From contig CM049313.1 of NCBI GenBank assembly GCA_026874595.1, positions 57,431,159-57,495,158 on the forward strand: DNA of 64,000 nt, written 5' to 3'. A program made the position numbers and the translations under genes. How positions within the stretch are numbered: the stretch's first letter is position 1; the number at the start of each line of letters is the position of its first letter. Source of the stretch: Sipunculus nudus (lineage: Eukaryota; Annelida; Sipuncula; Golfingiida; Sipunculidae). The notes under the pieces are model-generated. The model was given only the letters and a program-made list of their open reading frames with translations. It did not search any database and was not told where the DNA came from. Positions 11,583 through 48,600 of the stretch are shown here, piece by piece.

Positions 11583-12652
11583 TTATCGATTACCAAAGGT
11601 TTCCGTCAAAATTTCCTTCCATTTATTGATCATTGATCTTACTTTTAATACCTTTTTTGGTCTTTTATTTGTGGACTTTAGGCCTGCTGGTCCTGACTGA
11701 ACACCAGAGGAAGTTGAGGGGACTGGGGAGGAGGTAGTGGGCGGTGATGACGGGGAAGAGGAGGAGGGGGAAGTATAAGAACGAACTGAAGCTGGGGAGG
11801 AGGCGGTGGTAGGATGAAGATGGGTTGAGGCCGGGGCGGAAGTGGAGGGGACTGGGGAGGAGGTAGTGGGCGTTGATGATGGGGAAGAGGAGGAGGGGGA
11901 AGTGCAAGAACGGACCGAGGCTGGGGAGGAGGTGGTTGATGGATGCAGACGGGCTGAGGCTGGGGCTGAGGTTGGGGAGGTGGAAGGTTGGTGTGGGGCA
12001 GGGGTCACAGAGGTGCTAGGGGAGGGGCGGGGACTGTTGGAGGTCATGGAGGGAGTTTTGATGATACACCATGAGGAGAGGGAGGGTGAAGGGGTGGTGT
12101 TTGAGCCCTGGGTGGAGGGGGGAGAAGGGGGCTGTACATGGACTGATGGAACAGGGCTCCTGACAACTTCCCAAGAATCACTATGAGACCCATGAACACC
12201 CACCCTGAGGCGTTTTGCGGGGTGAGAGTCCTCAGAGTCAGTGTCAAAGACACTGCTCCTCTTCTGACCCCGCTGAGCTGAACGATATGCTTCTACAGAT
12301 TCTAAAACCTCCTGAGGAAAGGTATCCTGGCGGTCACTCACTTCGAACAGGACCGCATCTAACTCACTTTGTAACTCATCATTGCGGTCTCTGGTCTGGC
12401 GCAGCTCCTCTGTTGTTGTGGCGTGGTCCTTACGGACCTCGGCCAGCTGGCTATTGGCCCGGTCCAGCTGTGACTGCAGGTCCGTGACTTTTGTGGTCAA
12501 GGACTGGACCTGGACCTGCAGTTGCTGGACCAGACCTGTGGCTGTGGCCAGCTGGCCTGTGAGCTGCGCCTGCACCTGTTGCTGGTTCTGGTGCCCCACA
12601 CTCAGACCATCACCAATCAGTTTGGCCACCACCTTGACCGACTCACTTCTTT
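11583..12652 (-). CDS. Last exon of the 429-aa gene (coiled coil, Ser/Pro-rich tail)
   Basis: Acceptor TATTCCACAG ends at 12653. An open frame continues upstream of it to an in-frame ATG at 12680, but that is probably intronic read-through, because splicing from exon 3 joins in frame at 12652. The exon is notably GC-rich compared with surrounding DNA. It encodes the coiled coil, the basic PAKRLRV cluster and the Ser/Pro/Thr tail. A direct duplication of ~129 bp (about 11700-11900) yields two similar ~43-residue blocks, each ending SSPVPSTS. Stop TAA lies at 11585-11583. Confidence 0.75.
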
Positions 12653-15600
12653 CTGTGGAATACAGAAAAAGGAAGACCATCTGTGAAAATTTGTAGACAG
12701 GTACTACTACAAGAAGTAAAACATAACTGAGAATGTTTGTACATTTAAATTACATGTCTACATGTTTGTTCTTATTCTGTAGAGCAATTCAAGAAACCTA
12801 GAAGCTACATGCATTCAGAAATGCAAGGGTTAGCAAACATCTACACAGTTAGTATAAGTGCTATACTATTCCCACACTCTTTTTTTGGCTTTTTGATAAT
12901 TAAACTGTTGACAATTAAGCAGTTTACACATTTGTACAGTCAGATCCATTTTTTTATTGAACAAATTTTTATTTCAATTTTATGAAATGTGAACACTTGC
13001 AATATAGTCCCCAGTCCACAGGCAGAAGGACTTGAGAGTGGGTATGGATTTGGGGGGGATTTGAAAATGATGGAAGTTACATCATCTCTGTACCTCTGCA
13101 TTTATTTTCTTTATTTAATATATTTTATGCAGTTGCTATAAAACTACCTTCCACATTGTGCTCAGATGGAGGGAGTAGGGGGGTTACCATAAAATTAAAT
13201 TTCCATCCAACAGTGCTTACAGGAGTTTATTCAAAAGTTTATTCATAATTATTTACTATTTAAAAACAGGTAGATGGCAAACAAAGCAAATCACTCTTAT
13301 TCCCACTGCACTGAGGCAGGAGAAAAATGAACAATTATTTGCATTGGATCCTCATTTTTTATTACATCAATTTTATTTAAAGTTTATAAATTTTTACATG
13401 TGCAGTATAACATATATACCTGAATATTGAAGTTGATTCACAATTCTAAATTGCATCATAATCTGTTGCTAATTCGGTCAGGTGACATATTATGGATACT
13501 GACATATTTATTTTTTCAGATATACAATTTTTTTTTATAAAATATATCTTTTGAATTTTCAAAACAATATAGGTCCTACATATACCCGATAACAAAACTT
13601 GATTCAGAATTCACAATTGTAAGTTGCACCTTTATTTATCCATGATTTGGCTCATATATTATCCAATTATGCAGGCCTACTGATGGGTTTATTTATATTT
13701 TAACAAGGGACCCATGGTTCACAGCGCTCAGCTGAAGTTAAAAATTTTGCAAATGCAAAATATGCAAAATATTCTATTGTAATGTTTTCATATATATAAG
13801 GATATAAGAAGCTAAGAGGAAAGGGGCCCTTTTATTTGGTTATAGTAAAGTTTTAAATATATGATTGCAAAACTTATATATGTCAAGACTGTCATGAAGA
13901 CAAGTGGCCCATGGGCCATGACGCTCGGCTAATTTAGACTGTGTGCTCATTTCTTTTATTAATGTTATATATTGTTTGTGAGAGTAGCCTATGGCTAAAG
14001 TTACCTTGTTAAAAAGTGGACAGAAAATAAAAATTTCAGGAATCATAGGAGACCTGCCCAGGACCGCTCTGGATTTCACAATAGAGGGTTCCAAGGAAAA
14101 TGGATACAATTTTTACCCTGTCTGTCTAGGTGCTCAAAATCATGTTACTGGTCCATATAGCTGGCTAAATATAGGTCACCATGATCCAATTTCAGGTTTC
14201 CAAGGAGAATTGCCAAGGATTTTCCTCAATGTCATGTTAGAAGATTCTAGGGCCAATGGATACAATTTGTGCCTTGTCTGTCTTGGTGCTCAAAACCATT
14301 TTTCAGCCCATAGGTCACACAATATAGGTCACCATGATCTAATTTCAGGTTTCCAAGGACACTTGACTAAGACCTCGCTGAATTTAATATTAAAAGATTC
14401 TAAGCCTAACAGATACAATGTGTGCCCTGACTGACTGTCTGGGTACCTTTATGACTTCTTTTCCTAAAGGTCACAAAATATAAGTCATGGTGACTTAATT
14501 TCAGTTTCCCACAGACATTGGCTAATGAAATCTCAGAATATTAAATTAGAAGATTCTAGGCCTTACAAATACAGTGTGTGCCCTGCCTGACTTTCCTTGA
14601 TGCTCAAAATACATTTTTTGGCCTGTGGATCATAAAATGTAGGTCACCATGACCTAATTTCAGGTTTCCAAGGAGATTTGCCTAGGACCTTCCAGAATGT
14701 TGCATTAGAAGATTCTAGGCCTAACAGATATGATATGTGCCCATCTGAGATTCGGGGTACTAAAATTTGGGTTTTTGTCTTGCAGGTCACAAAATGTAGG
14801 TCACCATGACCTAATTTCAGGTTCCCAAGGAGATTTACCTAATGCCTCTCAGAAAATTGTGTAAGAAGATTCTAAGCCTTACAGATACAATTTGTTACCA
14901 TCTGACATTCAGGGTGTTCATTAGACATCTTTTCCTATAGGTCACAAAATATAGGTCACAGTGACCTAATTACAGGTTTCCAAGGACATTTGCCTATGAC
15001 CTCCCTACATGTCATGTTCCAGGATTCTAGCCCTAATGGATACTATTTGTGCCCAATCTGAATGACTGGGTCCTCAAAATCATGTTTTCGGCCTGTAGGT
15101 CGCAAAATATAGGTCACCATGACCTTATTTCAGGTTTTCAAGTAGATCGGCCTAGGACCTCCCTAAAAGTCACATTGGAGAATTCTAGGCCTTATCCATT
15201 CAATTTGTGCCCCATCTGACTGTCTAAATGTTAAAAATACAATTACTCTGCCCCAAGCAGATAATAATTTTATGCTCGCCACACCATCAGTGTTTTGTGT
15301 GTTGGGCGCCATTAAAAGGAAATGATACTGGGGGGGGGGGGGGGGGGGACAATACTAGTATATACACAAATATTTAAAGCCCAAGACCTGCCTGGTTGAA
15401 AAGAACGTAATGATAACCAAAATCAGAGTTAAAAACTGTACCGACAAATAGTGAGAATACTTGGAGGGCTGACATCATTATTAGTAGGGGGCGCTGGGCG
15501 ATAATTAAGGTAATTAACACTGTGTTCTGGGAAATCTGGTACTCTTCACGTATGGAAACCCATAGCCAGCAGCGTGAGGACCTTGCTAAATAAGCAGATT

Positions 15601-21600: not shown

Positions 21601-24600
21601 ACTCCCTGAGTGGAAGTCTCAAAAATAAAGAAAAAATTTGAAAAAAAAAAATCCAGGTGGTCCACCAGTCTGCAGGAACTGATGAACAATCCATGATCAA
21701 TATGCATGCAAAAAATCATGGCGATCAATGAATCAGTTATTCAGATCCTGGAACATCTGTATCAAAATTTTAATTATTCTGGAGGGGACTTACTTTCCCC
21801 ATAGCTTAAAGGATATGGGTAACAAAGACCTAATTTCAGGTTTCATTGAAGACATTTCACGACTTCCTTGGATGATAAGTAAGAAAATTCTAGGTCAAAC
21901 AGTGACTTTTTGTGCTCTGATTAAAGATAAGGCTTGATTTTAAATTCTTAAAAATAGTGAAAAAATGTGTAAAAATTTAAAAAAATACAGTAGCACAACC
22001 AGTCTTTAGGGAACTGATGGAACACTCCATGATCAATATGCATGCAAAAAAACATGGCTGTCAGTGCATAAATTATTCAGATACTGTTGTTTTTATATCA
22101 CATTTTAATTATTCTGAGGGGTATTTACTAGCCCCATAGCTCAGAAAATTAGGGTAGCAGAGACCTTATTTTATGTTTTAAAGGAAAATTTCATGCACCT
22201 CCCTAGATGACAAGTATGAAGATTCTAGTTCAAGCGGTTATTATTTAAATTGTGCTTTGTTAACAGATGAGGCTTTATTTGGAGGTCCCAAAATAGAGAA
22301 AATAATGTGTAAAAATTTGAAAAAATACAGGTGCAACCAGTCTACAGGAACTGATGAAACACTCCATGATCAATATGCATGCAAAAAATCATGGAGATCA
22401 ATGCATTAATCATTCAGATACCGGAGCCTTTGTATCAAATTTTTAATTATTCCATGGCCCCATATCTCAGAGGATTTAGGTAACAGAGACTTAATTTTGA
22501 TTTTTCAAAGGACATTTTTCTTGGACCTTCCTGGATGTAAAGTAAGAAGATTCTAGGTCCAGTGGTAACAGTTTGTGCCCTGTTAAATGCCAGATGGCTG
22601 GAAAGACGGACCGAAGAAGGACAAAGGGTGATGGCTATAGCTCAGTTGATTTTCAGTCAGCTGAGTTAAAATTCATAAGTTGGGCTTGCCTATGGTGAAG
22701 CATGGTGGGGATTGTGCCTGACTATCAGCTGTTACATAGGCCTATTCCTGCAACAGAATGACCAAGTTTGTTACAGTTTTACAATTTACAAGCACTTGTT
22801 GGTAAAGTTACTAATATATGCATATATTTATACATAAGTAAATAAAGAATGTGTAAAAAGCCAAAAGATTCATTTGCCGCCTCGTTCTGATTACCCTGCT
22901 GAACTGTGTGTCAAGCATGTGGCACGCGCCCTTAGTTGTTGATTGCGCAATAATGTCCTTGCGGTGCAATAAACCTGAATGGCCTCATGCCTTGCTATTT
23001 CGAGCTCACCCCATACAAAAAAAAAAGGTTGCAGCAACCTTGCAGCAACCTTGTGGCAACGTTGCTGCTACCCATTTTAGGTTGCAGCAAAGGGTACCAG
23101 CTAGTCGCCAGGTACCAGCAAGCTGGAACCCAAGGTTCCCACAACGTTGCTGCAACTTACCAGCTAGTTGCCACATACCAGCTAGCTGGAACCCAAGGTT
23201 CCCACAATGTTGCTGCAACATACCAGCTAGTCACAAACTACCAGCTAGCCAGAACCCAGGTTCCAACAACGTTGCTGCAACATACCAGCTAGTCACCACG
23301 TACCACCTAGCTGGAACCCAAGGTTCCCACAGCAATGCTGCAAGTTTATACACATATGCATGCAGCTAGATGAAATCAAAGGTGCCTACAACACACAGGC
23401 TCTGTATAAAAATAGATCTCCACTAGCCACAAGATTCCAACTAGCAGAAAGAAACCACAGGTTAAATTCACAAGGTCTCTGCATCCACCTGGGGGTTGGC
23501 CTAACAATCAACACATTTTAATGCAAATTTCTTTCAAATGAAAAATTCTTTCAATTTGGTAACTTACGACATAAATTTTTAATTTAAAATTCAGTCTACG
23601 TAAATTTATTATATTTAATATGATGTAAAATCAGTACTGGTATGCCAATGGTTTACTTGGGTGACCATTTTGCCAGAGAGTTCTCCTTGCAATAAGTGTA
23701 CACATAAGATAGCCGGTGGGCAACTGAATTACATTAATACAAATTAAAATATCTTTATAATGTTCACATCATCCAATTTTAGTGGTGAGGAAGCATTAAC
23801 TGTTGGAAGTTGTTAAACATGCACACACACAGCAAGCACCCAATCACCTCTAAATTCAGTGAAAACACATCATACAAATTCAAACATTTAATGCAAGAAT
23901 GGTTAAATATGCATCAAAGATGAAACATTTGAATTTACTTATTATACTACCCAGTGATTAAAGTAAGATGCCATAGTTTTGCAGTGTTTACAAAATTAAT
24001 AAAATTTTGACTATAAATCTAAACATGAACAATTTTAACAATACCATATGTCTGTATGGCTGACTATCAAGTTGAGATCCAAGTATGAAGTCCTAACAAA
24101 TTACTACGGACTAAAGAATTCTCCTTTACTCTCACACAAACCAAAGCTAATATTTCCAATGTTACTGATGAAAAAATGTAAATCCCAGACACATATTTTC
24201 CTCCATAATTTATCTGGGTAATTATATTACTGAATCAATGGTATGCATGGTTATCTTAAGTATGTTATTTTTGTTTGCTGTGTCTAAAGTGGAAAGACAA
24301 AAGTTTGATATTAAAGATTTAAAGACATCTCTCATTTTATCATTACATCAAATTGTGAACATATAATATATATAAATAAAAGGCAGGTACTGATAATTTT
24401 ACCTCAGAACCTAACCCTAGATTAATAAATTTTAGATATACTTGTTGCTATGGTGATATAAATTACAATGATAAACCAGTGAGTTTGACATCAGTGAATT
24501 TCCTAATTAAATATAAGCATTTTCATTCACACAAAGAAATTACAATTGGCATCCATTCACATTCTTCAACAATACTCCACAACTATCTCAACTGAATTCC

Positions 24601-27600
24601 ATGAACATTAGTCTTTTTTTTTTCCATGGCCTGTTGGTGACACTGTCTATTGAATGAGAATATAAGGTATCCATATGATGAGAATGATTTTATTTATAAA
24701 GGGACACGTTCAGGAGCAATGCTGTGCCTATTTTTTCATACTATCAGTTCAGTTTTGCTTTATACGATACTTTCCCACAAAACCGGCCCAGCACACAGCC
24801 ATATAGAACCTCGCACACGGCTGTTTAACACCTTGTTATGGCTCCGTATGTTGGTAAACACAATCCACGTGTCTGTTTACCATAACAAGGCCATGTGACT
24901 GGAGGTCCAAATATGAGTCTAAACACATGTTTTAGCTAGTATGGAAAAGCATTATATTTTTGGTCAAGTCAGTCGAGGCATCTCCTGATCGACATGTGTT
25001 ATAGCTCCGTGATGCACGTCCCCCTGTGCTGTGTTTACGCTGACACCTGTGATCGCGCCTGATACATTGTTTTAAACACTCGTTTACTGGAGTAAGCAAA
25101 TGGTTTCAAGGCAATATTTTGGCAGGTATATATTTTTTTTAAAGGGAAGAAGCTATTTTTTGTGTTAATTGAACATGCTTTTTAGGTGATTGGACCCCTT
25201 TAATTTCTCTTGATTTCAGGTTTGATATGCACAGGGTTAAGAATAATCCAGAGGTCATAACCTGTTGTTAAGACATGAGAGCAGATCTCTGAAGTTATAT
25301 AACGAGATTTCAATATTATGCCATCAAGGCACTGACAAGGTTCAAACCAGGGAACAGTCCAAAGCCTTAACCACCAGGCTACATCTTACCTCTTGAACTT
25401 TAAATCTTTGAGATGTACACACTGTTCTCCCTCTCACATGTGGTTTAATAGATCTCTGCCGTATTTGGCTGCTCACAAACATATATACTATTTTCCACTT
25501 GCACATTGACACAAATTCCCAAAATTTTGAACAAACTCACTATCTCCATCTGAGTATCCACTGCATCCATTTCACAAATTTTTATATGTGGAATTTCTAA
25601 ATCAAGGAAATTTTCAAATTTATCAGAAAAAAATGTTTTTGAAGTACTTTGTGGAAAAGACTTAATCAGTGCTAGTACAGTTGGTGAACATTTGCACAAA
25701 GACTGACACAGGCACATTGGTTTGACTTCAGCAAACCATTGCACCTGTCCAAATCTGATAGTACTGTTCACAGACATATATTTCACAGTACAAGAGTCTC
25801 TGGAGCTTTGCCTTTTGTAATCTTTTGACTGCAACAACTGACCTCTTAGGTAAACCCTGTTGAAGAATCTTGGGGACTTTGGGTGATAACTGAAGTAATT
25901 CATAAGCAGCATATAAACCTCTGCATCTAGTTCTCTATCATAGCCTTTGCCAGGAAAGAAATAAATCCCGTTGTATGTCTCCTGAAGATTGTATTTGTCC
26001 ATATGTAGGAATTTGCGAGCAAGCTGACCTGCACGAGAATAGGATGGGATTTCCTGCACTAGAGAGGGTGCTAACTGAACAAAGTTCATAGCATTCACAA
26101 TTTGGAGATCAATATACTGTGTCCCATGAAATAATTTTGTCAGCTGACCATTTGCATCCTCAAAAGGGAAGCAGGAATTGCACCAGAGTGGCCCTAATTG
26201 TTCTACAGATTCTGGCAAATGTAATAAGTTGTGCATATTAAGTGTATTGTAACGTGCTCCATACAGTTCATCAAACATAAAAACAAAATACTGCAGATAA
26301 CGTCTGCTATTTTGAATGTCAGCAGGGGTAACACTTCCTTTGGATAGCAGAAATAGGGCACACATAAAAGAGGTGTAGTGATATAAATAAAGTGGGTCCA
26401 TTATATCCAGCAGAATAGGTAAAGAATAGAAAAAAAGCCAAGATCTGAATTCTGATGCTTTCCAGAATTTGCCATGGTTTGAATATGAACGGGGAAGTCT
26501 TGATATCATCCAGGGGGGCTTTATTTTGGAAAGTCTCTGGTCTATCAAACATGTATAGGCTGAAAGGGAAAATCTTTCCTTGGAATGGACAGATGAAAAC
26601 CACAAATTGGTTAATAATTTGGTGATGCCAAGCAGAGAACCATGCATATAATCTATAGCCATACCAGACACAAAACTGAAAGTTTGTAGGGCCATTAAGA
26701 AAGATGGCCCTTTCATGCCCATAGTAGTTTCATCAGCTTTCATGCCTTTCCTTCCTAATGCATTTTGTGCACCCTGTATACATATTGCTTTGGTTCTTTC
26801 TGGACCTGAAGGGTTGTCTTTGTCATAAGGAAACACATGGACACTTCCTCCTTTATCTGTTTTTAATGTTTCACCTCGCTGAAGACAGCTACTGCAGCTG
26901 TACATTCCATTGAACTGGTTCATGTTCATGACTAAACTCTTGGCAGGAAGGTCTAATGTTGCACATATCAGAAATGATTTAACATTTTCATTTTTTCCAT
27001 CAATATTAATTAGAATACCTTCACTTTCAAGTCTGTCTAAACATGAATGCAGAGGTTTGATAAAAGAGAGCATGACTGGCTTAGTGTCACCATACCAAAG
27101 CCCACATAGTACCAGGTTTTCCTTTTTAGACCTGAGGTGAAATGGCAACTCATTGACCATGAGATATATTGGCCACAAGGAGGTTTTTGAGCTTTTAAAT
27201 ACTGAAATTCCATCTGTATTCAAAGTGAATGATATATTATAAGGATGGCTTGAAGACAAAGGTCCCTGTTTTGACTCATTACTCAACTGCTTATATAAAT
27301 TTCCATCATATATATCTTCTATGTTTTCCCTATTCTTTTTTGTTCTTGTGAATCTGTGCCTGAGTACTTTAGTGAATCCATCTCTTGTAAACATCTTTGA
27401 CAGTTGATTTTCCACTGGAATATAAAGGAAGTATGCAGTGTTACCCTCCAGGTTCTTTTGGCAATATTGATTTGAACATTTAGTTTGTCCCTTTGCAGTA
27501 GGTGTTGTACAGCTATTACAAAAGTAAAATTTAGTGACAGGTGACTTCAGAGATGCAAAGTACTGTTTAAATCTATAGACAGACTTCAAGCCTGGATGTG

Positions 27601-30600
27601 ACACCATGCAGTGTAAGCTGATTAGTTCCAGTAAATCATTCAGCTGACATGAGTTGAGGGAATGCACTATGCAAAACAGCCATATCAGCAGTATGCTGAC
27701 AGAAACTGTTAACTGGGCACCAGGATATATTGGCAAATTTCCCTTTTCAAAAAGATGTTCATTTTCTCTATCAGTTTGGTTCTCCTCCTCAACATGATCC
27801 ACTTCCAAATCTTCACTCTCATCATCTGACAGTAAGCGGGTCTTATTATTAAAATGAAGAAACTGGTTTTCATCATCACTTTCACCATTCTTGGAATCTT
27901 CATGTTCAAAGCTGAAAATCAGATTCTGCACAATGTCCTTAACCAGTAAATTGTCCTGAAAACTTGGCATGTTGGTATCATTTTCATTTTCTGGTTGTTT
28001 AGGTTGTGACTGTGAAAGCCCTTCATCATCTTCAACATCTTCATCTGTTGTACCACTTGTGTCTAGATCATTAAAAGGATGTAGAGCACAAGCTGAAGCA
28101 CCCTTTGATCCACTTTCAACTGTACCATTATCTGGATATATTACTGCCAAGTTGATATCACCAAATCTGTTTTTCAAAACAGATCTGTCTGCTGATTTCT
28201 GTTCTGACATGAGTGTACTTTCATCTGCAAGATTATCTGGTTTACTTTGGTCACTCAGAAGCTGCATTCTTTTCAGTTTATTCAGTTTTGGTCCATAAGC
28301 TTTAGGTCTGACACGCCCAAGTCTGTCAGTTTTCATCATATTATTTTTTGCCTTGTCCATGGCTTTTCATCCAGTGTGGCCTAGAAGTTGTAAAGACCTG
28401 CAATGGAATAAACAAAAGTGGTAACACAAACTTATAAGGAAAATACATTTCTGTGACCAGCAGCTTGTCTTCGTTTGTATTTGCATTCACATGCATATTG
28501 AGAAATGATGGAACTGTCATGAGTCTCCAAGTATATATGATTTTTTCTTATGTAAAAAGAGCAGATCAAACCTTCTTAACCATGCTGATATATATCTGCC
28601 ATCTTTGCAATCAGCTTTAACATGCACTACACTTTTTCATAAAAATATAATTAAGTTAGCCTAAGACTTCCTATATTAAACCACAGAGGCATGTTCAGGA
28701 TGCTTTTATCATTGAGGAGGGGGCACTGTCTGAATATGAAGTACAGAGATTTTATATTAAACTTCTAAAATATTTTTTGCATAATATACTATCTATGTGA
28801 TATTATGAGTTACTCACCCTTTTAATCAAGTCTTATCTGACCTATTTTTGCAGCTCCTAGCTGAACTGTCTGATATTTATGTCAATTTAAAGCATGCAGG
28901 CAGGGCAGGGCGTGCTGGTAGCTTAGTGCTGGTCAGTACTACAATCACTTGATATACGTCACCCAAACAAGGTCAAGGCTACAGGGCAGCAGTGAATATG
29001 TACTGTTAGGCTGCTGGACATGCCTGATCAGTCAAGGGATCCCGTGAATGGGGTACTGGTACCCTGGATGATTATCATTTGATTTAACCAGTTAACAGAA
29101 ATTTTATAATAGGTATATTTGAAAAGCATATCATTTCTCAATTAAAATGTTATATTTTTCAATCAAATGAAGTTATTTAACCTATGGAAAAAATATTTAG
29201 TGCATAACTGATGTGCATTCTCCAAAGTGAGGCTGTTGTTGGAGGGAAATTTAGATTTTCAACTGGTAGTTGGATATCAGTGGATATAGCAAAAATATGG
29301 CTGTACCCTCTTTTGTGCTGGTCTCATGGCCCAGGGAAAAGGATAGGATGTCTGTCATCCCTTATTCATGTATAAAAAAACTGCAAGGCATGGATAATGA
29401 ACTATATGAGAAGACAGATGTGTATGCAGAAGGACAGGTGGTCACAGCTACTTGCCCTGGATGGCCTGGGAAATATCCAGCCAAGATTATCAAGATGGGT
29501 GGTAAGTCCTTTCTCTATTTCTCTGAATTTCAAATGAAGGTTTTTAATTTCACTATAACCCACAACTTCTGCGAAAATTGATATAATTTTTATATAATGA
29601 CAAGCTTCCTTTTTATCAACCAAGGGTTTGACATAATTGTAATATACTATCCCATGTATGAATTCTAAATGAGTTCAAAATGAAATGTGAAATATTATGA
29701 TATATATATATATATATAAATGGTGGGAATAGGTTTAAAACTCATAATTGCGGATTGAAAATTAAAAACCACCAATCACTGATTATGAATCAAATATTTC
29801 ATGCAAATTCTATATTACCTTGAAATCTGTTGTATAATTATTTCTATAGTCTGTTCAAGCACCCCTGTCAACCTAATTTTTCTCTACATAACACAAACTT
29901 GCCAAACAAAATTTACGTCAATAGCCTAAAGAGGAAAATGTGTAATTTTTGGTAGCCTACCTACTTTCGATATGAATATTTTTCACTTTACAGTTTGGTT
30001 GATTTGTCTCACATAGGGTCATGGTTCATGGCATCCTCAACAAGTTTATCTTCCTTTGATATGTATAGAAAGTAATTGTGACATACGTAACAGTGAAGCG
30101 GGTGCACAAGGAGAATATATTAGCCTGGCTGTATACAGGACTCAACAGCTCTTTATTATTGGTCCAGTGAATGTCAGTGCCTCTCTTGTGCATCATGTCT
30201 GTTATGATGACACCACTGTTCCCTGTCATGCTCATTTTATAGATTAGTGGCAAGATGTCACTACAGAATAAACTAGTTACTCATAAAATGGTTTTAAATT
30301 GTTTACACGAATATGACATGAGATAAAGTCAGTACAGCTAAAAACTGAACTTGGTTACTAGTTGGACATGTACATCTGTATTCATAGTGATTTAATCAAA
30401 TAATCGGCACACCATTACATATATTTATATACATGATGTTGTGTGTAAAATCTAAATTTATTTTGAAAAAACTTTCACCTTCAGATGAGAAAGAAAAGCT
30501 GACAGAAGAAATGGCTGCTCTGGTTACAGAACGATTTAAATCCTCAGGTATGCTTGATTTTATGGAATATTTAAATCCCCCAATAAAATCATTCCTTTAT

Positions 30601-33600
30601 TTATATCATAACTTAATTATCCAGCAAAGCCACTGATTAGTTAAAGAAACATGAAATCTATTTTTAAAGAATCCAGTTATGATCCATTTATTTATTTTAT
30701 TTATTATTATATTAATTTTTCCTGCTACACCAGTTTTATTTAATGGCATTGAATGAAATGTTTCCTTTGAAATTGATCCCCTGTACCCATTACAGGAATT
30801 ATTCTTTCAAGACTTTGGGCCTTTTTCTTTGCTTTTTGTACTGTTGAACACCATAGGGAATTTGTTGATGAAGGGGAAATTAATGGGAAAGTTGCACCTT
30901 CTGTTTTCCCTAACTGCCAAGACCTTGCTTCCAGGGACAATTAAGGTAGAATTCAAACATATACCAAAACAAGACTTGACATCAGGTCTCTATGAGTATA
31001 AGCATGCATGTCTTAATATGTTAATAATAAAATCACTGTAAATGATACTTCATCTTCAGCTGCAGCTACACATGATACCTGTGAAACTGCACCAACATTG
31101 AAACGACAGAGGAAGAAAAATCCAGATGCAGCCACTGAGGGGACAAGTAAAATTGCTGAGAAATCATCAGTAACATCCAAAAGGAAAAAGAAATTAGGTA
31201 TTGGAATCAATTAGGTCATTAATGCAGTGCAACATTTGATAGAGCAAAAATTAATATTAAACATTTTTAATCTGGTGGCTGTGAAATTTCATACATTCAG
31301 AAATTTGAGTGCTACATCACTTTACAATCATTGTTCGTAAACATGTACTGATTCAAATAAAAATGACATAAAATTATAAAATAATTATTACAAATATTAA
31401 ATTTTATTTCTGTTTGAATCAGGGAAACTGGAAAAAAATATTTATATGTGAATATTTCAAAGTTTACAGTACTGAATTGTGCAGCTGACTAAATCTGCTT
31501 TAACAAAAATAATGATTTTCATTCACAATGTTTCCTCATATTTTAATTAACAGATGGACCAAAGGTGCAAAAGGAGTCAAACCAGGATAAGATTCTAAGA
31601 CAGAGACAGAAAGGTAGACAACTTTCTTAATTTCTTGCTTTTTAAATGATTAAAGTAAGAAATTTTGTATACCACCAATTATTAAAAAATATGTGCAATA
31701 GTATACCTGAATTTTTACTCACCTGTAAAATGTTTCCATGTCACTTCTTTCTATCTGACTGTAGTTCTCTTGGTTAGTTTCTTGTCATCTTCACATGCTG
31801 CTTTTTAGAAGTCACTTTGTACTGTCAGCGCACAAGCATTACTTTGTGATTTACTACATTAACACTGTAGTTATGTAATTACTGTGTAATAATCTTTTAG
31901 TCAAACACTTATTAATAAACATTGAAAATTGCCCAGTTTATCAATGGATACAGATTGTCTACTAAAATCACTTTTATTAGTCCCAAGGTGGTTATTTGAG
32001 ACAGGTTCAGCTATATGTGTGCATGCCCAGAGCTCTTTTCATATACCAAAAAAATGAGTGTTCATTGTTTTCTGTTTCAAGAGGAGAAGGAAAGAAGGAA
32101 AAATGAGCACGAGGCAGCATTAAATGCAAAGCTGACCATGGCGAAGGAGATGTTCAGAACTGTTCATCTAGCCCCAGTCCATCAGCCACCCCCAGCTGTT
32201 CAGCCACCCCCAACCATTCAGCCACCCCCAGCTGTTCAGCCATCCACAGCCATTCAGCCACCCACAGCTGTTCAGCCACCCACAGCAATTCACCATGCCC
32301 CAGATGTTCATCCAGCCCCAGCTGTTCAGCCACCACCAGCTGTTCATCTAGCCCCTGCTGTTCTTCCACCACCAGCCGTTCATTCAGCCACATCTGTTCA
32401 GCCATCCCAAGCAGTTCATCCTGGCACAACTGTTCATGCAGCCCCAACCGTTCAACCAGCATCAGGAGATCTTAGTTCTACAGATCCCACTCAAGCTGAC
32501 AACCACCAGGGATCATGGGGAGGACCCTGGAGTCACCAGCAGCCTGGCAACCAGCAGGGACACTGGGGAGCCCCCTTGAATCATTTCCAACCAGCCAGCA
32601 GTTACCATGGAGGCCCTGCCAACAAAAGTGTGACCCTGACTGCCAGCCATGATTACCAAACAGTAATGCCCCAAACTGCTAGCCAGCAAGGACCTGTGTA
32701 TTGGAGCAACCAATCAACACCTGGCACCCAGACCCAACAAGTGGTCCAGCAGAGCACCATGGGTCCCATGATGGCTGCTCTTTGTGGATCTGATGACACC
32801 TGCCCTAACTGTGTCTTGAAAGACCAGCAGCTAGCCGAGCTCCAAAAGAAAATAGAAATGTTGGAAGAGGAGAAGAGTGTCCTCCTCAAGGACAACAATG
32901 CCTTGCTGCAGCAAAACAACAGCAGAAATGTCACAGTTGGTAAGGATGATTTTTTTTTAAATTATGAAAATCTATCAAATCTGGCGAATCTACTTGGAAA
33001 AATAATGATGCAAATATTAATTTTACTTGTCATATTGTAAATTAGCACCATTGGTTATACGTAAACATAGGAACTTTTCTAAGCTGACCCTAACATTAAG
33101 ACATCTAGATAAACAGTCACTGGACCGGATAAATTTATTTTGGCATTATCTTGTCATATGCTCAATGAAATAAAAAAAAAAGAAGAAAAATGGAAAAATT
33201 CTCTATTAGTTTACATTCTGTTACAGTTACTGCTCAAAGCTTTTTTCCTATTCTAGCAGTGTAACTTTTACTTTGAAAATTATTAATATTATATGACTGT
33301 TACATATTACTATTCAACTCCTGTCACTGCATGATTAGACAAAGTGAATATTGACAAATATTTACAGATTTTGTTTACATTTCTTTTTTTACATCTTTCT
33401 TCTTCAGCAAGTCCACAGCCTGAGAAGTGTGGTAATTACACTCCAAAAAGAGGCATCATCATTCCGTCTGCTGAACATGTGAGTGAACAAGTCCATATAT
33501 TATATCTTCATAGATTAGTTTAACATAATGTTGATTCAGTGATTAATAAATAACACTTTTGGTTGATATCATTCAGCTACAATACTTCCTGATGCAAGCA

Positions 33601-36600
33601 AAATAGTACATTTCCTGTTACACAAAACCTGTGATTTCCATATTTCAGATAATTTATTTGCTTTATATTTTTCATGAATTTATATACTGGTCCAATTCTT
33701 TCAAGACTTCACATGTTGATTGTCTTAATGGCTCAGTTCTTTCCAATTTATAAACTAATCATACACTATGACACAAATGTAACATATGCAGTCTGTCACA
33801 TTTCCATAAGTTATTATATTTGAAAATTTCTTGGTAAAGCAGAAGATTGTAATATTTATCCTCTTGTGTACAGAAAATATTAGGTTCAGGAGACGAGATG
33901 CCAGAAGGGTATCAACGCCTTTCAAAGAATTCTGATGTTGCTGTTCCAACAGCTTGGCTCAGCATTGTGTACGGAAAGTGCAAAAAAAAGGGAGAGGCCT
34001 TTATGCTGAAAAAAATGATAGATGGCCTGATGAATCCATGGGATGTCCCTCAGTCAGGTCTGTTTGACAAACTGTATTTTACTATTTTCATATTAATATA
34101 CAGACAAATTTAAATGAATCTGCTCTTCAAGAGTGACTATGGAATAATATATACAGCTAATTAAGAATGAAGTTATTTTACTTGAGTAGAACTATATTAC
34201 GTACCATAAAATACTACTGTAAGATTACACAGGTGCATTTATATTTTCATTGTCAGTAAATATCACAATACATATCTTACTTGGACCAAATTACATGTTC
34301 ATAATAAGATATAGCAGTTAAGTTTTATAAAAAAGAGCACCCAAAACATGCATAATCTCGTGACCTCTGACCTGATTAAATATGCATGAATTTTTCAGAG
34401 AATTAAATCCAGGTGAGAAAACTTTATTGGTTAAAGTTTACAATGAGTTTCACAAAAATCCATCAGACTTTTGGTAAATCATATGTTACCAACCAAGTCT
34501 GGTGACCTCTGACCTCATTAAATATACATGGATTATGCCAGAATCAAACTTAAGCTAGATATTAGATTTGTTAATATTTTGGTTGAGTTTCATAATGCAA
34601 TCATAATCCATCATATGCCTGATAAGTTATAATGGTGACACCACAAAGTAGCCTCATGACCTCTGACCTCATTACGTATGCATGGATTTTGTGTATAATC
34701 AAATTTGGGTGAGATAATCTATTGGTAAGTGGTTATAGTGAATTTTGTGAAAATCCAGCAATACTAAAAGTTAACAGATGGATGGACAGACCGTGGGTTT
34801 ACCATATTACATCCTGTCATTGATGGGCATTTAAAACTCTTTCATACAATTGTATATTTGTATAATTATTTTAGGTGGAGTCCGAGAATGCGAAGGGGAG
34901 AGTAGGCTGGTACTGGAGGCTGTCACAAGTATGTGTATAACAAGTCACACTTAAGTAATTCTATGTCTTAATTACTATGTACCTGCCATCTCACAGAAAG
35001 CAGAAGATTACTGGAGATGCCACTGGTCTTCTGTACAAGACTGGTTTTCCCTGACATTTGACAATGCTGATTTTCAGAAAATTCCACCTTTCCATCTTAA
35101 TATATCTAATAATTTGAGTTTAACTCTCAGTCAAGGTCATGTCTCAGTTTTACAATCAGTTTTGTCCTCCAACCTATATCTATGCACACACAAAAATTAA
35201 TCTTTAATATCTTTAATATTAATCTTAATATTAATCTTAATATATCTTAATATATCTAATAATTTGAGTTTAACTCTCAGTCAAGGTCATGTCTCAGTTT
35301 TACAATCAGTTTTGTCCTCCAACCTATATCTATGCACACACAAAAATTCAAAGATATCAGTTAAATTTTTCTTTTGTATATGAGCAAACATAATTAATTT
35401 ATTATAGGTGGCTGTGAAACTGTACTGAAATCATTGTACATTTCATTCAAAGAGAAAAGTATTGCTACAGTAGTCATCTGAATGTACAATCCTATTCCTG
35501 CTTGATTTGCAAGGATCAAAGTCTGGTGAAATATAGTATAATAGACCAGCATATATTCAATTTTATTTGAAAGTCCTGAAGGTGATTGGTTGGATGGAAA
35601 CCAAGTTGCATTCTTCATAAGATTTTGGGCTCAGACATTTTTTATCTTGTATTCACATATATTCAAAAGATTTCTCTATATTGTGTAATTCATGTTCTTT
35701 TTTTTCAGGATATGGTACTGAGAAACTGGGGTTGACTGAAGTGGAGAGTGGGAACCATGTTTACAGGAAGATTCTAAGTCTGAGGAGAACAAATAAGAAC
35801 TGTACCCATGCACGTACAGTTGAGGACAACTTGACAAATTAACCTGACACTGATTACATATCTTCCTGCAACCTCATTTACGAATTACAGTTTCCAGTGG
35901 TTGCCAAATTCAAGTCAATAAATAGTTATGCAAAATGGTATTTTCCAGTTTTCTACTTCAGTCAAGAGTGAAAGTATGGAGTAAAAGTAATGGCCCTTAT
36001 TCTAATATTAACCCTTTTTATTTGTTTCCTGATCTTCATAGATTAATGTACATAAAAGTGCACTTGTCTCTGGTTCTGTTCATCATGTATTGTTCCACAG
36101 ACCTATAAAATCTAATTTCAAAAGTTTGCAGCATTTTGGGATTTTGCATGATTTAAATCCCAGCCAGTACATTCTGAGGAGCCTATACCTCTGGCTGTAT
36201 GGTCAATACCCTGAGGGAGGGTTGTGGCAATGTTGCTGCTACCTTGGGAGAGGGTTGTAGCAATGTTGCTGCTACCTTGGGAGAGGGTTGTGGCAACGTT
36301 GCTGCTACCCTGAAAGAGGGCTGCTGCAACGTTGCTGCTACCCTGAGAGAGGGTTGTGGCAAGGTTGCTGCTACCCTGAGAGAGGGTTGCTGCAACGTTG
36401 CTGCTACCCTGAGAGCGGCTTGCTGCAACGTTGCTGCTACCCTGAGGGAGGTTTGCTGCAATGTTGCTGCTACCCTGAGAGAGGGTTGTGGCAAGGTTGC
36501 TGCTACCCTGAGAGAGGGTTGCTGCAACGCTGCTGCTACCCTTTATCTGTATCCTGCTAACCCTGCTACATTTGCCCATATGCCAAATAAGGAACCTCAT

Positions 36601-39600
36601 GAATGCTGTTGGGACGTAGCAGCAACCCTCATTTGCATGCTAAATAATACGTAGCAGGTACGTACCCACTACCCTTAGCTGGAACGTTGCTGCTACATCC
36701 CCACAGAGGGTTGTCACAGGCCCTGTTTTTCTGTATGGGACACCTAAGATGTGATCTATCATACCTTTGTCTCACAACTGGGTCTGCTGAAAGTAAGTGG
36801 CCAAAACATGCTCTAATATAAAACTAGCTACATATTTTTACATTCTTAGCTTTCAGTTCATTTGATTCAAACTTAAGGAGTATTCTTACAAGGGATAAAC
36901 TTCACACTGAAGTGTGTCATTAACTCATTTCACGGCAAAGACTGGAGTGGGGATTTTGGTCACCATTTACACATCTTTCCTGCTTTTTAATGATTTTATG
37001 CACTGTTATAATACAAATAATTCAATTTCATGCAGTGAGACTATTTTTATAAATGGACTACTACTCATCTGCAAAAAACTTATTGATTTATGAGAATTCT
37101 TGCTGAAAACTTCTGATCAATAAATGACATGCATATCCATGCTTGGCAATTGGGAAATCATAATAAATGACAGGTGTGCATGTTCTTGGCCATGAATTCA
37201 GAACATTTTAAATGTTTTTCTTTGTCTGAATGAATCACATGATAAAGGTGCTTGTACCTGTTCTCAAGTATAGACTCCTGCACTTGAACTTGTACTCAAG
37301 TAAGCCTAAAAAATTCAGCACTTGTACTTATCAAAAGTTGAAGTACATTTACTGATGTACAGACCCCCTGTAATAGACCAAAGCCTGGTCAGCTGAGTTA
37401 AAAAAAGATTAAAGTTGACTTACTGAGTGTGCTGATTGAGCGCCAAGTCACGGTGGTGGGCCAGTTGGCTGGTCTGAGGTGGGGCTGGTAAATTTTCTTT
37501 TTGTTTGGGTTGAAAAGTTGTCTTAGGCATTTCTGCATGCTGTCTGCACTAAGACCTGCAAAAAAAAATACACAATCAAATGATGAGAAAAGAAGTGGTT
37601 GTATAGCAAACTACAATAAACAAAAGACCAAGGGACCATGGTGCTCAGCTTTAAATTTGTCCAAGAGAAAACAAATTGCCCATGAATCACAGTACCCAGC
37701 TGAAATGTAGCAGAATGCAGGATACAGAAAAAGAAAATATACTCAGCTGTTGGGCTGCTGAAATCTGGCCAGTATTTATATTTAGCTCCATCTAGGGAGG
37801 TGGGGGGGGGGGGGTTGCATCTTTTTATAATGCTTTTGCAGACATTGGTTTGTTTGTTAGCAACATTACTCAAAATGTCATCAACAGATTTTGATGCATG
37901 ACATTTTCGGGATCTCTCAGCAATGATACCAGGAGCAGCTGATCGAATTGTGGAAGTGATCCAGGTTACTATCTGGATCCCGGAATTTTTTAAAAGCAAA
38001 ATGCCTCATTTCTGACAACGCCACATGCGGGTTGTGCCTTGGCAAAGATCTGTGCAAATTTCTAGTATCTGAATAATTTACTCAAAAAATTTTGTTTCAT
38101 TAAGAAAATCACCCCAGCTGAACATTCAGGAGTAAATATTTAATTCCAATATTTGAAGAATGACCCTTATTGCTATCTGTTGAGGTATCAAAAAAAAGTT
38201 TAAAAGAACACCGCAAATGTGCAAAGTTGTCTTATAGCTGTTGATATCTGACTTCATTAAATATGTGTGAATTTTGATGAAAATGTAATTCAGGTGTCAA
38301 AGTCTGTTGGTTATTATGTATTAAGGATTTTTGGTAAGTTACCACTGTGCCTCCAAAATACAGTGACCTCTGACCTCATTATATATGTGTGAATTTTGAT
38401 GAGAATATAATTCAGGTGAGAAACTCTATGGGTAAATATATATAATGAGTTTCATGAAAATCTGTGAATAGGATATTTGTTAAGTCATCAAGGTGCCTCA
38501 ATAGTGCAGTGACCACTGACCTCATTAAATATGCGTGGATTTCGAGGAAATCTAACCTAGGCAAGATATATTATTGATTGACTTTTCATGTAATCTATTG
38601 GTAAGTAGTTATGGAGAGTTTGATGAAAATCCATTGAAGCCCTGGTAGGTTTTTTTTGGCGACACATAAAGTTAATGGACAGACAGGAGGTAAACCATAA
38701 TACTCCTATCATAAGATGGGCGTATAAAAACAAACCTATTAGAATTCCACCCTGCTGGACACCATAAATTCACTTTTAAGCTTGCCAGGTGGTTTATCAA
38801 AACAGGGTCATTTGGAATAATAACTTTCAAAACAGTCAAAATAATTTCTGAAATTATATTTATTTTATATCCTATTGGTTTCATGTGAAAGACAATGCAA
38901 ATGGTTTTCAACTCTTCTGTAGCAGAGAATCCCAGCTACTGGGTATTCCTCAATTCATGTGCTAACTTAGGGACCTAAGCACTTGTGTAACATAAGACTG
39001 CATGTATAATCACATTTGAATAATTTCTTTAAATTTAAGTAATAATTATAAATAATATATATAGAGCTGAGGATCTACAACCTAAACATTTGTTAATTGA
39101 AAAACATTTATTGCATCATTACGTATCATAATTTCTTGTGTGTTATTATACAATATTTTTTCTAGGTTACGATTTGTGCCCTGGTAACAGATGTCCATAT
39201 TTTTGAAGGTCTCAAAAATAAAGAGAAAAATGGGTAAAATTAAAAAAAGATACAGTACTCCAATCAGTCTGCAGGATCTGATTAAACATTCATTAATGAA
39301 TGCGCATGCAAAGAATCATGGTGATCATTCTATAAGTTGTTCAGATACTGGAGCTTTTGTATCAAATTTATTATAATTCTGGATGATACTTGGGGCCCCA
39401 TTGATCAGAGGATATGGGCAAAAGACTTTTCCAAGGATATTTTTCATCCAGGTCCATTGATAACAATATGTGCCTGGTTAATGGACAGACGGACAGATAG
39501 ACAGACAGCTAGACAGAAGGACGGCAGGGACAAAAGACTGAAAACTATAGCTCAGATGATTCACCTGTTAGGTCTCTACAACAAAGCTATCAAGATGGTG

Positions 39601-45600: not shown

Positions 45601-48600
45601 ACTTTATCTGTGCCTGTCACTTTAAGAGTAAACCCAGTCAAATGTATGAACATGCTTATTAATGAATTCTCTGTGAACACTAATCAAAGGGCTGGCAGTT
45701 AAATGATAAACTGAAATGTAATTAGAGAGTTACCCTGCACAGAAGTCTACTAAATACCTGTTTCATTCCATAGGACTGATCACCTTATAATATCTAATGA
45801 AAATTGGTAAAATATAATGATTTGAATTATCATAAAATTATCACACTGGTGATAGTTGCCCTTCCATCAAGAAATTGACTCTCCTGAGTCGAAACAAACA
45901 AACAAAAATAAACAATATTGTTAGAATTACACAATATAAATTACCTTAGCTGTCATTAATTTAAACTTACATCACATGGAAACACTTGAATTTGATATAA
46001 TAGGATTAATGTAAAAACAAGTATAATCATCCTCATCAACATAGTAAATATGCTACATACAATCAAAGTGAATATTCTGACATAGTAAAATGAACAAAAA
46101 CTAAAATAACAAAGTATGAGAACATGCCATTGCCCCTTTCATTTGTTAAGTGATGCATACATTTGGCTCGTGAGATGAAGTGCATAATTGACATGATTCT
46201 AATTTTGTGAAACTATGGACCTGCCAGAGATTTTGCCTTTTATCTAATAATTTAGTCCTAACTGTTGGATCCTTAATTTTGATAAAAAAAATGACATATG
46301 AATATAGATAAAAGACAAATTCAAGGCAGTAATCACTTGAATGAAATGAAATAAGTGAGCTAAATAATATGCATCCAGAATTTGTGAAAGTACAAGCTGA
46401 AACAAAGTAGTAGCACCAAGTGCAATTAAATTAAGCAAATATACGTTAATTTTCTACTCAGACAAGTCTTCATCATTGTGTTAATTAGTTTTATACTTCA
46501 TTACTACCAATAACCATGTAAACCTATCCATTTTCTTTTCTCAATTTTGTGCCAAAAGGCATAAGTCTTTACAAGTCAGTATATACATTTTCTATACATG
46601 TATATTGTAATAAACACACTGGACTATTATTGCAAAAATAAGACATGATATATACTATGGTATATATTTTAAATAGATGGTATATACTATTGCCTATTAT
46701 ACTAGGGATTTACTCTCCGTCATCACTGTTTACAATATACATGCAAAAGGTACATTCATTTGTTTCTGCTTTACAGATATTACAAAAATTGTTTCTTATG
46801 GATCTACCGCACATTTCACAATGTTGGACCCTATTTTTACACTTTTCCATTTTACACTTTCTTTGCCTATTAAAATTCTGTCTTTGAAAGTGACCTCTTC
46901 CTCCCTGAACAGATATATTATTGACCTGAGGTGCTAGTAGCTGATCTAACTGTCTTATGGTTTTAATATGGGATTTCAATTTTTTGGTAAGTTCATTTAT
47001 CAACCCTTCTTGAATGTCAGCATTTCTTTCTAATTGATTGTTGTAGTGTTTTGATCTGTCCAATTCTCTTTCCAAAACAACCAATCTATCATTTAGTTTC
47101 TCTGTTTCCTGGACTAACTCTTTATTTTCTAATTCAAGTGACTGAATTTTGACCTGTTCATCTTCCACAGATACAGTATTTACTGAAACTGATGAAACTT
47201 TCTTAACTCTTTTCTTCAGCTTGATGCGCAAAGCATCATTCTCAAAATTAACTACAGTTTTCAAATTTAAAGTTTGATAAAGTTCCTTGTTTGAAATATC
47301 CATGAAGGGTAGTTGACTGGGAGCTGCAAAACTTCTTCCATAATGAACGTCTCCAGGTCCACATTTTGTTATATCATCATCTTCTCTTGCACTTTGCTGT
47401 TGTGTAAAACAGCAGCGGGCGAAGTGGTTCAGTTGATGGCATTTGTGGCATCTTTTTCCTTTAGCTGGACAGTGACATTGATGGGCTCTGCTGTATGTAA
47501 ATCCACACTTGTAGCAGAGCCCTCTTTTTTGGAACCAAATCATACAAAGGAGTGGCATCTTTTAGCTGGGGAATTAGTCCAAATTTGATCTGGGGGAATT
47601 AGTCAAATTAATGTTAACTTGGCGTTGTGTGAGATGTACCGAATAGTAGTTGGATCGCAAGCCGGATTCTCCCCAACTATCACCGTCCAGTTGTTTACGT
47701 GCTTTTGTTCACAGGTTGCTGATTTCTCAGATAGAAGAATTCTTTAGTCCAGATGTAATTTACTTTCAAGTTTATTCAATCAAAGTTAACAATAACAAAT
47801 GTCCAATATATATATTCTGCTAGTTTCCCTATTTTCCACTTGACTGATTCTGTTCTCTCTGTCTCTGTCTCTCTCTCTCTGTGTATTAACTCCTGTTCTT
47901 ATTCCTGTCTCTTCTCTCTTTCCTAGTTCTCTAACTCTTTGACTCCCCTCTCTTTAGCTCTGACCTTAACTCCCTGGTTCAGTAGCCAGTATCTCTATTT
48001 AAACATTTTACCCAAAATAATAATTGCAATTAAGGAATTTCTTACAGCATTAATACAAGACATATTGTGTAATACATTCAACACCTTTCTTGCCCTCCTG
48101 TGAACACCTAAGTCTAAACTGTTAATTAATTACTTTATCTGTGCCTGTCACTTTAAGAGTAAACCCAGTCAAATGTATGAACATGCTTATTAATGAATTC
48201 TCTGTGAACACTAATCAAAGGGCTGGCAGTTAAATGATAAACTGAAATGTAATTAGAGAGTTACCCTGCACAGAAGTCTACTAAATACCTGTTTCATTCC
48301 ATAGGACTGATCACCTTATAATATCTAATGAAAATTGGTAAAATATAATGATTTGAATTATCATAAAATTATCACACTGGTGATACTTTATTACTTGAAT
48401 AAAACCTACAGTTTTTGATCAACTGGTTTCTAATTTCAGATGTTAATAGATGAAATGCTGATAAAAACAAGTGACCCATTGGTCATGACGCTCAGCTGAC
48501 TGGGAAGAGATTTGCAAAAGGAAATTTTATGATCTGAATGGTAGTATATAATCATTGAACTGAAGCATCAAATAGATTAACCAACAGGCTGAGATTGTGT

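What the first reader, a model, noticed from the sequence alone, without database searches (positions are those of the whole stretch)
23010..36739. Intact 13.7-kb CACTA-like transposon with two divergent genes
Seen: matching termini, subterminal repeat arrays at both ends, an unbroken 971-aa TNP2-type transposase and an unbroken nine-exon second gene, all between the same inverted ends. Known: plant CACTA/EnSpm elements encode a TNP2-type transposase (TNPD) plus a second protein (TNPA) that binds subterminal repeats. Inference: this animal element has an analogous two-component system and may still be active, since both frames survive.
Basis: partly seen in the sequence, partly recalled or inferred. 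Interest (0 to 1): 0.87.

Follow-up and report, generated by a model that had tools for sequence, protein, structure and literature searches.

The report
Animal CACTA-like transposon with BEN-type partner
This is a complete, recently moved 13.7-kb jumping gene that carries its cutting enzyme and, back to back with it, a second gene whose likely DNA-binding product may recognise the repeats at the element's two ends, a layout best known from plants.

Summary
The window holds a DNA transposon of 13,730 bp (23010-36739) with CCCATACA(A/G)AAAAA inverted ends, inside a dispersed repeat. The uninterrupted site with one AC occurs at eight other places, the form with two ACs at none: a 2-bp target duplication. 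CCC ends plus 2-bp duplications match the animal "TRC" branch of CACTA/EnSpm (PMC1636069). The 971-aa transposase has Transposase_21 and the D-D-C(2)C-H(3)H-E signature. Gene 2 looks real: nine exons, GT-AG introns, 588 aa, coding constraint, splice positions shared with a relative of about 40% identity. A near-palindromic 13-bp core lies at 17 sites, only in the two ends. Transposase and gene 2 stay head to head in four same-family loci and in diverged relatives, two of which have a sub-threshold Pfam BEN hit downstream. Gene 2 is probably a BEN-type DNA-binding partner, an analogue of plant TNPA. Not shown: expression, binding, mobility, or any significant BEN match for the window's own exon. 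The other full-length copy found (0.68% different) has both genes broken.

The parts
23010..36739 (.). complete transposon, 13,730 bp
   Evidence: inverted ends plus empty-site matches
23008..23009 (.). target-site duplication AC (left copy)
36740..36741 (.). target-site duplication AC (right copy)
23010..23023 (+). left terminal inverted repeat CCCATACAAAAAAA
36726..36739 (-). right terminal inverted repeat CCCATACAGAAAAA
   Evidence: the 23-mer of this end has no other match at <=2 mismatches
23029..23343 (.). left subterminal repeats (11-bp and 63-bp units), 6 core sites
36207..36693 (.). right subterminal array, 10 x 33 bp (36207-36542) plus one more core near 36680; 11 core sites
25445..28360 (-). 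transposase gene, 971 aa, one exon; Transposase_21; D383, D470, C489-C492, H710-H714, E734
28361..29296 (.). 936-bp space between the two divergent start codons (promoter region inferred)
29297..29501 (+). gene 2 exon 1 (small N-terminal domain, conserved in relatives)
30485..30547 (+). gene 2 exon 2
31060..31197 (+). gene 2 exon 3
31554..31613 (+). gene 2 exon 4
32082..32939 (+). gene 2 exon 5 (18-bp-unit Pro-rich repeats, then a stretch that reads as coiled coil by eye)
33408..33478 (+). gene 2 exon 6
33874..34057 (+). gene 2 exon 7, probable first half of a BEN domain
34875..34928 (+). gene 2 exon 8
35709..35842 (+). gene 2 exon 9 with stop codon

Best explanation
An autonomous-looking cut-and-paste DNA transposon of the animal TRC branch of CACTA/EnSpm. 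SHOWN: exact ends, 2-bp AC target duplication, open TNP2-type transposase with the DDE/C(2)C/H(3)H signature, open nine-exon second gene with signs of coding constraint, a repeated near-palindromic core confined to both ends, and a conserved head-to-head gene pair. INFERRED: both genes are read from the 0.9-kb space between them; the gene-2 protein binds the GCAACGTTGC-type cores at both ends through its probable BEN domain and pairs through its coiled coil, bringing the ends together; the transposase then cuts at CCC and joins the element into a new site with a 2-base stagger. Gene 2 would thus do the job of plant TNPA.
For: Boundaries and target duplication. Transposase. Gene 2 model; coding constraint against a C12 relative, itself broken (41 synonymous, 52 non-synonymous over 262 codons, ratio 0.33, p 3e-8) and a C9 fragment (10 and 2 over 45 codons, p 2e-6); same splice positions and phases at the exon-1 donor and the exon 2, 5 and 7 acceptors in the C3 relative, read by eye. 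Core only in the ends. Linked pair: same family C8 (window), C2, C1, C12:53.93 Mb; diverged C3; exon-1-like hits (E 0.036-0.69) 2.6-6.4 kb from diverged transposases, divergent, at C8:28.05, C12:5.84, C5:65.96 Mb, 3 of 5 non-family hits, chance about 2e-9 for a 10-kb limit set after seeing them. BEN: 2 of 9 genome-wide Pfam BEN rows lie further downstream in two of these loci (C12:5851162, C5:65970533; chance about 2e-5); Foldseek of exon 7 lists the NACC1 BEN domain 2nd and 5th of 5.
Against: No transcript, binding or mobility data. Window exon 7 and its C3 relative do not match Pfam BEN; the Foldseek matches are not significant (E 7.7 and 9.5) and the model is middling (pLDDT 69.7); the two BEN rows are below Pfam's cut-off (18.1 and 17.1 bits against 23.2), and six of the nine rows, including the only one over cut-off, are not near a transposase. 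A search with the window's own exon 1 found 8 non-family hits, none within 130 kb of a transposase, so that domain also occurs elsewhere. Window against C2 shows no constraint within the transposase (3 synonymous, 9 non-synonymous). C2 right end is 35 bp short. Only two near-full-length copies found.
Confidence: 0.66

Rival explanations
1. Gene 2 is a captured host BEN-type gene carried as cargo and not needed for movement.
For: The exon-1-like domain also occurs away from transposases, and no function has been tested.
Against: The pair keeps its order and orientation in four same-family loci and in diverged relatives, and splice positions are shared at about 40% protein identity, so the link is old; exon 7 shows coding constraint.
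Confidence: 0.13
2. Gene 2 is a regulator or anti-silencing factor acting on the element's promoter or chromatin rather than a part of the cutting complex.
For: BEN proteins are mostly chromatin and transcription factors (recalled); plant TNPA also acts on its promoter (passage in PMC1636069).
Against: The core is found only in the two ends and not in the interior, so not in the 936-bp space between the genes. Not exclusive of the best explanation.
Confidence: 0.17
3. The element is a dead relic whose open frames survive only because it is young.
For: Very low copy number; the C2 copy, 0.68% different, already has a stop in the transposase and single-base gaps in gene-2 exons 1 and 7; no constraint visible between these two transposases.
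Against: Ends, catalytic signature and both frames are whole in the window copy, and two insertions at different sites within 0.68% divergence mean recent movement.
Confidence: 0.3
4. The true right end is 36704 and the last 35 bp are host DNA.
For: Two C2 places stop matching there.
Against: Those two share the same flank (one event); the 35 bp contain the matching inverted end; the empty site joins exactly at 36739/36740.
Confidence: 0.01

Closest known systems
SmTRC1 and other animal TRC elements (CACTA/EnSpm branch; PMC1636069: abstract, passages and section 8 read)
   Same: Transposase_21 domain, ends starting CCC, 2-bp direct repeats at the ends (7 of 14 SmTRC1 copies in that paper); several proteins per element; a tandem-repeat region in the element
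   Different: SmTRC1 copy there is about 4.7 kb with 54-bp inverted ends, its proteins come from alternative splicing; the word 'subterminal' does not occur and no divergent second gene is described in the parts read; this element is 13.7 kb with two head-to-head genes
Plant En/Spm (CACTA) with TNPD and TNPA
   Same: TNP2-type transposase, subterminal repeat arrays, a second protein
   Different: CCC not CACTA ends, 2-bp not 3-bp duplication (3 bp recalled), separate divergent gene, probable BEN-type protein
Harbinger/Nuwa elements (passage in PMC12730594)
   Same: two proteins: transposase plus a DNA-binding protein
   Different: different transposase superfamily; partner there is Myb/SANT
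BEN-domain proteins such as NACC1 (PDB 8yzs)
   Same: weak fold match of exon 7; sub-threshold BEN hits beside diverged relatives of the element
   Different: host regulators (recalled); no link with CACTA/EnSpm found in the searches made

Membership tests
CACTA/EnSpm-type (CMC) DNA transposons | TNP2/Transposase_21 transposase | tested here: met
   PF02992 6.9e-10, 38.9 bits against cut-off 28.6
CACTA/EnSpm-type (CMC) DNA transposons | DDE with C(2)C and H(3-4)H between second D and E (PMC12730594, passages) | tested here: met
   D383, D470, C489/C492, H710/H714, E734 in the window copy; of 18 other loci that cover all seven residues 15 keep all (23 of the 30 loci were given, some overlapping)
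plant-type CACTA | ends begin CACTA/CAC | tested here: not met
   ends begin CCCATAC
plant-type CACTA | 3-bp target duplication (recalled) | tested here: not met
   2 bp, AC
animal TRC elements | CCC ends | tested here: met
   definition from PMC1636069
animal TRC elements | 2-bp target duplication | tested here: met
   empty site with one AC at 8 places, with two ACs at none
En/Spm-like two-component system | subterminal repeats shared by both ends | tested here: met
En/Spm-like two-component system | second protein that binds the subterminal repeats | not testable with these tools
   needs a binding assay
En/Spm-like two-component system | both proteins needed for excision | not testable with these tools
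   needs a cell assay
BEN-domain proteins | match to PF10523 | tested here: inconclusive
   none for window or C3 exon 7; sub-threshold hits downstream of two diverged transposases; weak NACC1 fold match

The most novel reading that the evidence does not exclude
A whole animal branch of CACTA/EnSpm transposons is a two-component system in which a BEN-domain, coiled-coil protein encoded by a divergent gene recognises the ends; BEN domains, known from chromatin factors, would then have a transposon-encoded group, and some host BEN proteins might descend from such partners.
Probability: 0.4. Interest if true: 0.8.

Novelty: new variant of a known kind. Interest (0 to 1): 0.62.

Why it matters
Plant CACTA elements need a second protein that binds the end repeats; I found no paper that settles whether animal relatives do. 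A copy with exact ends, a defined partner gene and a defined candidate binding motif makes that directly testable, and a BEN-type partner would connect a family of chromatin DNA-binding domains with transposons.

Tried and rejected
Transposase fold: a single-sequence model was useless (pLDDT 32.7) and was not searched. Exon-7 model searched with Foldseek against the PDB only; the second structural library was absent. PDB sequence searches with gene-2 pieces gave no meaningful match (the factor H rows are short matches that I take as chance). Pfam gave no credible domain for gene 2 and NCBIfam none for the transposase. First BEN search at E 0.001 gave nothing in this genome or its controls; at E 10 it gave nine rows, one over cut-off, at C11, far from the one C11 transposase. 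Exon-1 search with the window's own letters gave 8 non-family hits, none near a transposase: reported against the reading. The gene-2 row against C2 (10 and 29 changes) is inflated by misalignment in the exon-5 repeats; one search has 3 + 3 changes in exons. Exons against introns of gene 2, window against C2, is not significant (p 0.14), transposase against its 3' side is (12 of 2,916 against 23 of 1,985, p 0.003). A one-AC pattern alone cannot show that other forms are absent, so the two-AC form was searched as a control and not found. 36704 as right end: rejected by the empty site.
Full report
WHAT WAS CHECKED. The window is part of an unnamed 1.43-Gb genome in 153 contigs. The finding claims a transposon at 23010-36739 with two divergent intact genes. 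I tested the ends, both genes, the repeats and the gene pair's conservation. I did not test that the host is an animal.

ENDS. The first 14 bases from 23010 and the reverse complement of the last 14 to 36739 agree at 13 positions, CCCATACA(A/G)AAAAA. The left flank ends in AC and the right flank begins with AC. The two flanks joined with one AC, 476 bases, match 38 other places, four at 96% and the rest at 79-83%; all 38 span the junction and 26 cover the whole query (40 of 406 candidates scored, so a lower bound). The 31-base junction with one AC occurs at eight places with 0, 0, 1, 1, 2, 2, 2 and 2 mismatches; the reversed control occurs nowhere. That pattern cannot list other forms, so I searched the junction with two ACs as well: no match at up to two mismatches. 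So the element entered a copy of a dispersed repeat, is 13,730 bp long and made a 2-bp duplication. An insertion on C2 begins with the same CCCATACA but has other flanking DNA. Two right-end copies on C2 stop at window 36704; they lie 18.3 kb apart and share the same right flank, so I take them as duplicates of one truncated end. A copy at C8:30.67 Mb keeps window 23021-26437 only, and a 76%-identical left-end piece lies on C4.

TRANSPOSASE. 971 codons, minus strand, no stop; Pfam Transposase_21, 6.9e-10. The CMC signature given in PMC12730594 (passages read) is complete: D383, D470, C489-x2-C492, H710-x3-H714, E734. I gave 23 of the 30 loci to the check, one being the window itself; of the 18 others that cover all seven residues, 15 keep all. 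The genome search lists 58 rows in 39 places.

GENE 2. Nine exons from 29297 to 35842 give 588 codons; the eight introns are GT..AG. Splice sites that could be aligned are kept in the C2 copy. In a relative on C3 (exon 7 42%, exon 1 39% identical) the exon-1 donor and the exon 2, 5 and 7 acceptors lie at the same codon and phase, read by eye on printed sequence; the exon-7 donor is not kept there. Changes against a C12 relative, itself with stops, are 41 synonymous and 52 non-synonymous over 262 codons (ratio 0.33, p 3e-8), and against a short C9 fragment 10 and 2 over 45 codons (p 2e-6); against C1 the ratio is 0.71, not significant. The transposase against C1 gives 0.57 (p 0.004), against C8:30.67 Mb 0.32 (p 0.09), against C2 0.78 (not significant).

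END REPEATS. Four 63-bp units on the left and ten 33-bp units on the right share GCAACGTTGCTGC. With up to two mismatches and both strands counted, this core has 9 hits in 23010-23400, 19 in 36180-36739, and none in the other 63 kb of the window; these are 6 and 11 distinct sites, since the core is near-palindromic.

CONSERVED PAIR. Both genes in the same head-to-head order: window; C2; C1, broken and stretched over about 30 kb; C12:53.93 Mb, a small broken derivative. Diverged: C3, transposase 52% and 46% identical in its two best stretches and broken, gene 2 some 10 kb away. With the C3 gene-2 letters as query, five further places outside the family appeared at E 0.036-0.87; three lie 2.6, 2.9 and 6.4 kb from a diverged transposase on the opposite strand (C5:65.96, C12:5.84, C8:28.05 Mb), chance about 2e-9 for a 10-kb limit chosen after the fact; the other two do not. 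With the window's own exon 1 as query, eight other non-family places appeared and none lies within 130 kb of a transposase; the domain is therefore not confined to the element.

WHAT GENE 2 IS. Pfam does not recognise it. Two lines point to a BEN domain, its first half on one exon as exon 7 would be. A genome-wide BEN search gave nine rows; two (C12:5851162, C5:65970533; 18.1 and 17.1 bits, under the cut-off of 23.2) lie on the gene-2 strand downstream of the exon-1-like hits at two of the three loci above (chance about 2e-5). A third (C1:110581574) lies 29 kb from a transposase in mirrored head-to-head order; the other six, with the only one over cut-off, are not near a transposase. Foldseek of an exon-7 model (pLDDT 69.7) lists the NACC1 BEN domain twice among five matches, E 7.7 and 9.5. 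My own reading of exon 7 as BEN-like came first and rests on recall. None is decisive alone; I put BEN at about 0.7. The end of exon 5 reads as a coiled coil by eye.

HOW IT PROBABLY WORKS. Shown: ends, duplication, both open genes, constraint, core, linked pair. Inferred: gene-2 protein binds the cores at both ends, pairs by its coiled coil and presents the ends to the transposase, which cuts at CCC and inserts with a 2-base stagger. In maize Spm both TNPA and TNPD are essential, and TNPD stabilises TNPA on DNA (stated in PMC1636069).

AGE AND ACTIVITY. Window and C2 copies differ at 91 of 13,380 aligned bases, 0.68%, gaps left out, at unrelated sites, so movement was recent. The C2 copy has a stop in the transposase and a single-base gap in exons 1 and 7 of gene 2. 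Only these two near-full-length copies were found. Present activity is open.

COMPARISON. CCC ends and 2-bp duplications are what PMC1636069 reports for animal TRC elements (abstract, passages and section 8 read). The element fails the plant CACTA end motif and duplication length. No paper in the held library combines 'BEN domain' with 'EnSpm' or 'CACTA transpos' (19 papers hold two of the three terms, all with zero BEN); five papers hold 'BEN domain', 'transposon' and 'transposase', seen as listing only. Most subscription papers and Repbase were not searched, so novelty of the gene pair is provisional.

Noticed in passing
G000 C12:35649261-35650595 (L058-L064): Gene-2 relative in which the exon-7 piece is repeated about seven times in tandem.
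   Followed up: partly
L055 (C9:12906652): A 256-bp piece of gene 2 around exon 7 sits inside an open frame that reads by eye like a retroelement reverse transcriptase.
   Followed up: partly
G000 C2:44903266-44926999: Two copies of the element's right part with the same right flank, 18.3 kb apart: a local duplication.
   Followed up: partly
G000 C5:65957511-65970667: A transposase relative in an 897-codon open frame, with an exon-1-like hit and a sub-threshold BEN hit on the other strand: perhaps a second complete family.
   Followed up: no
window 22765-23009 and 36740-36974: The insertion target is itself a dispersed repeat with 38 other places found.
   Followed up: partly
window 46710-47558 and 11583-12680: Open frames of 282 aa (Cys/His-rich start) and 365 aa (coiled-coil-like) without a Pfam family over cut-off among the rows shown.
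   Followed up: no
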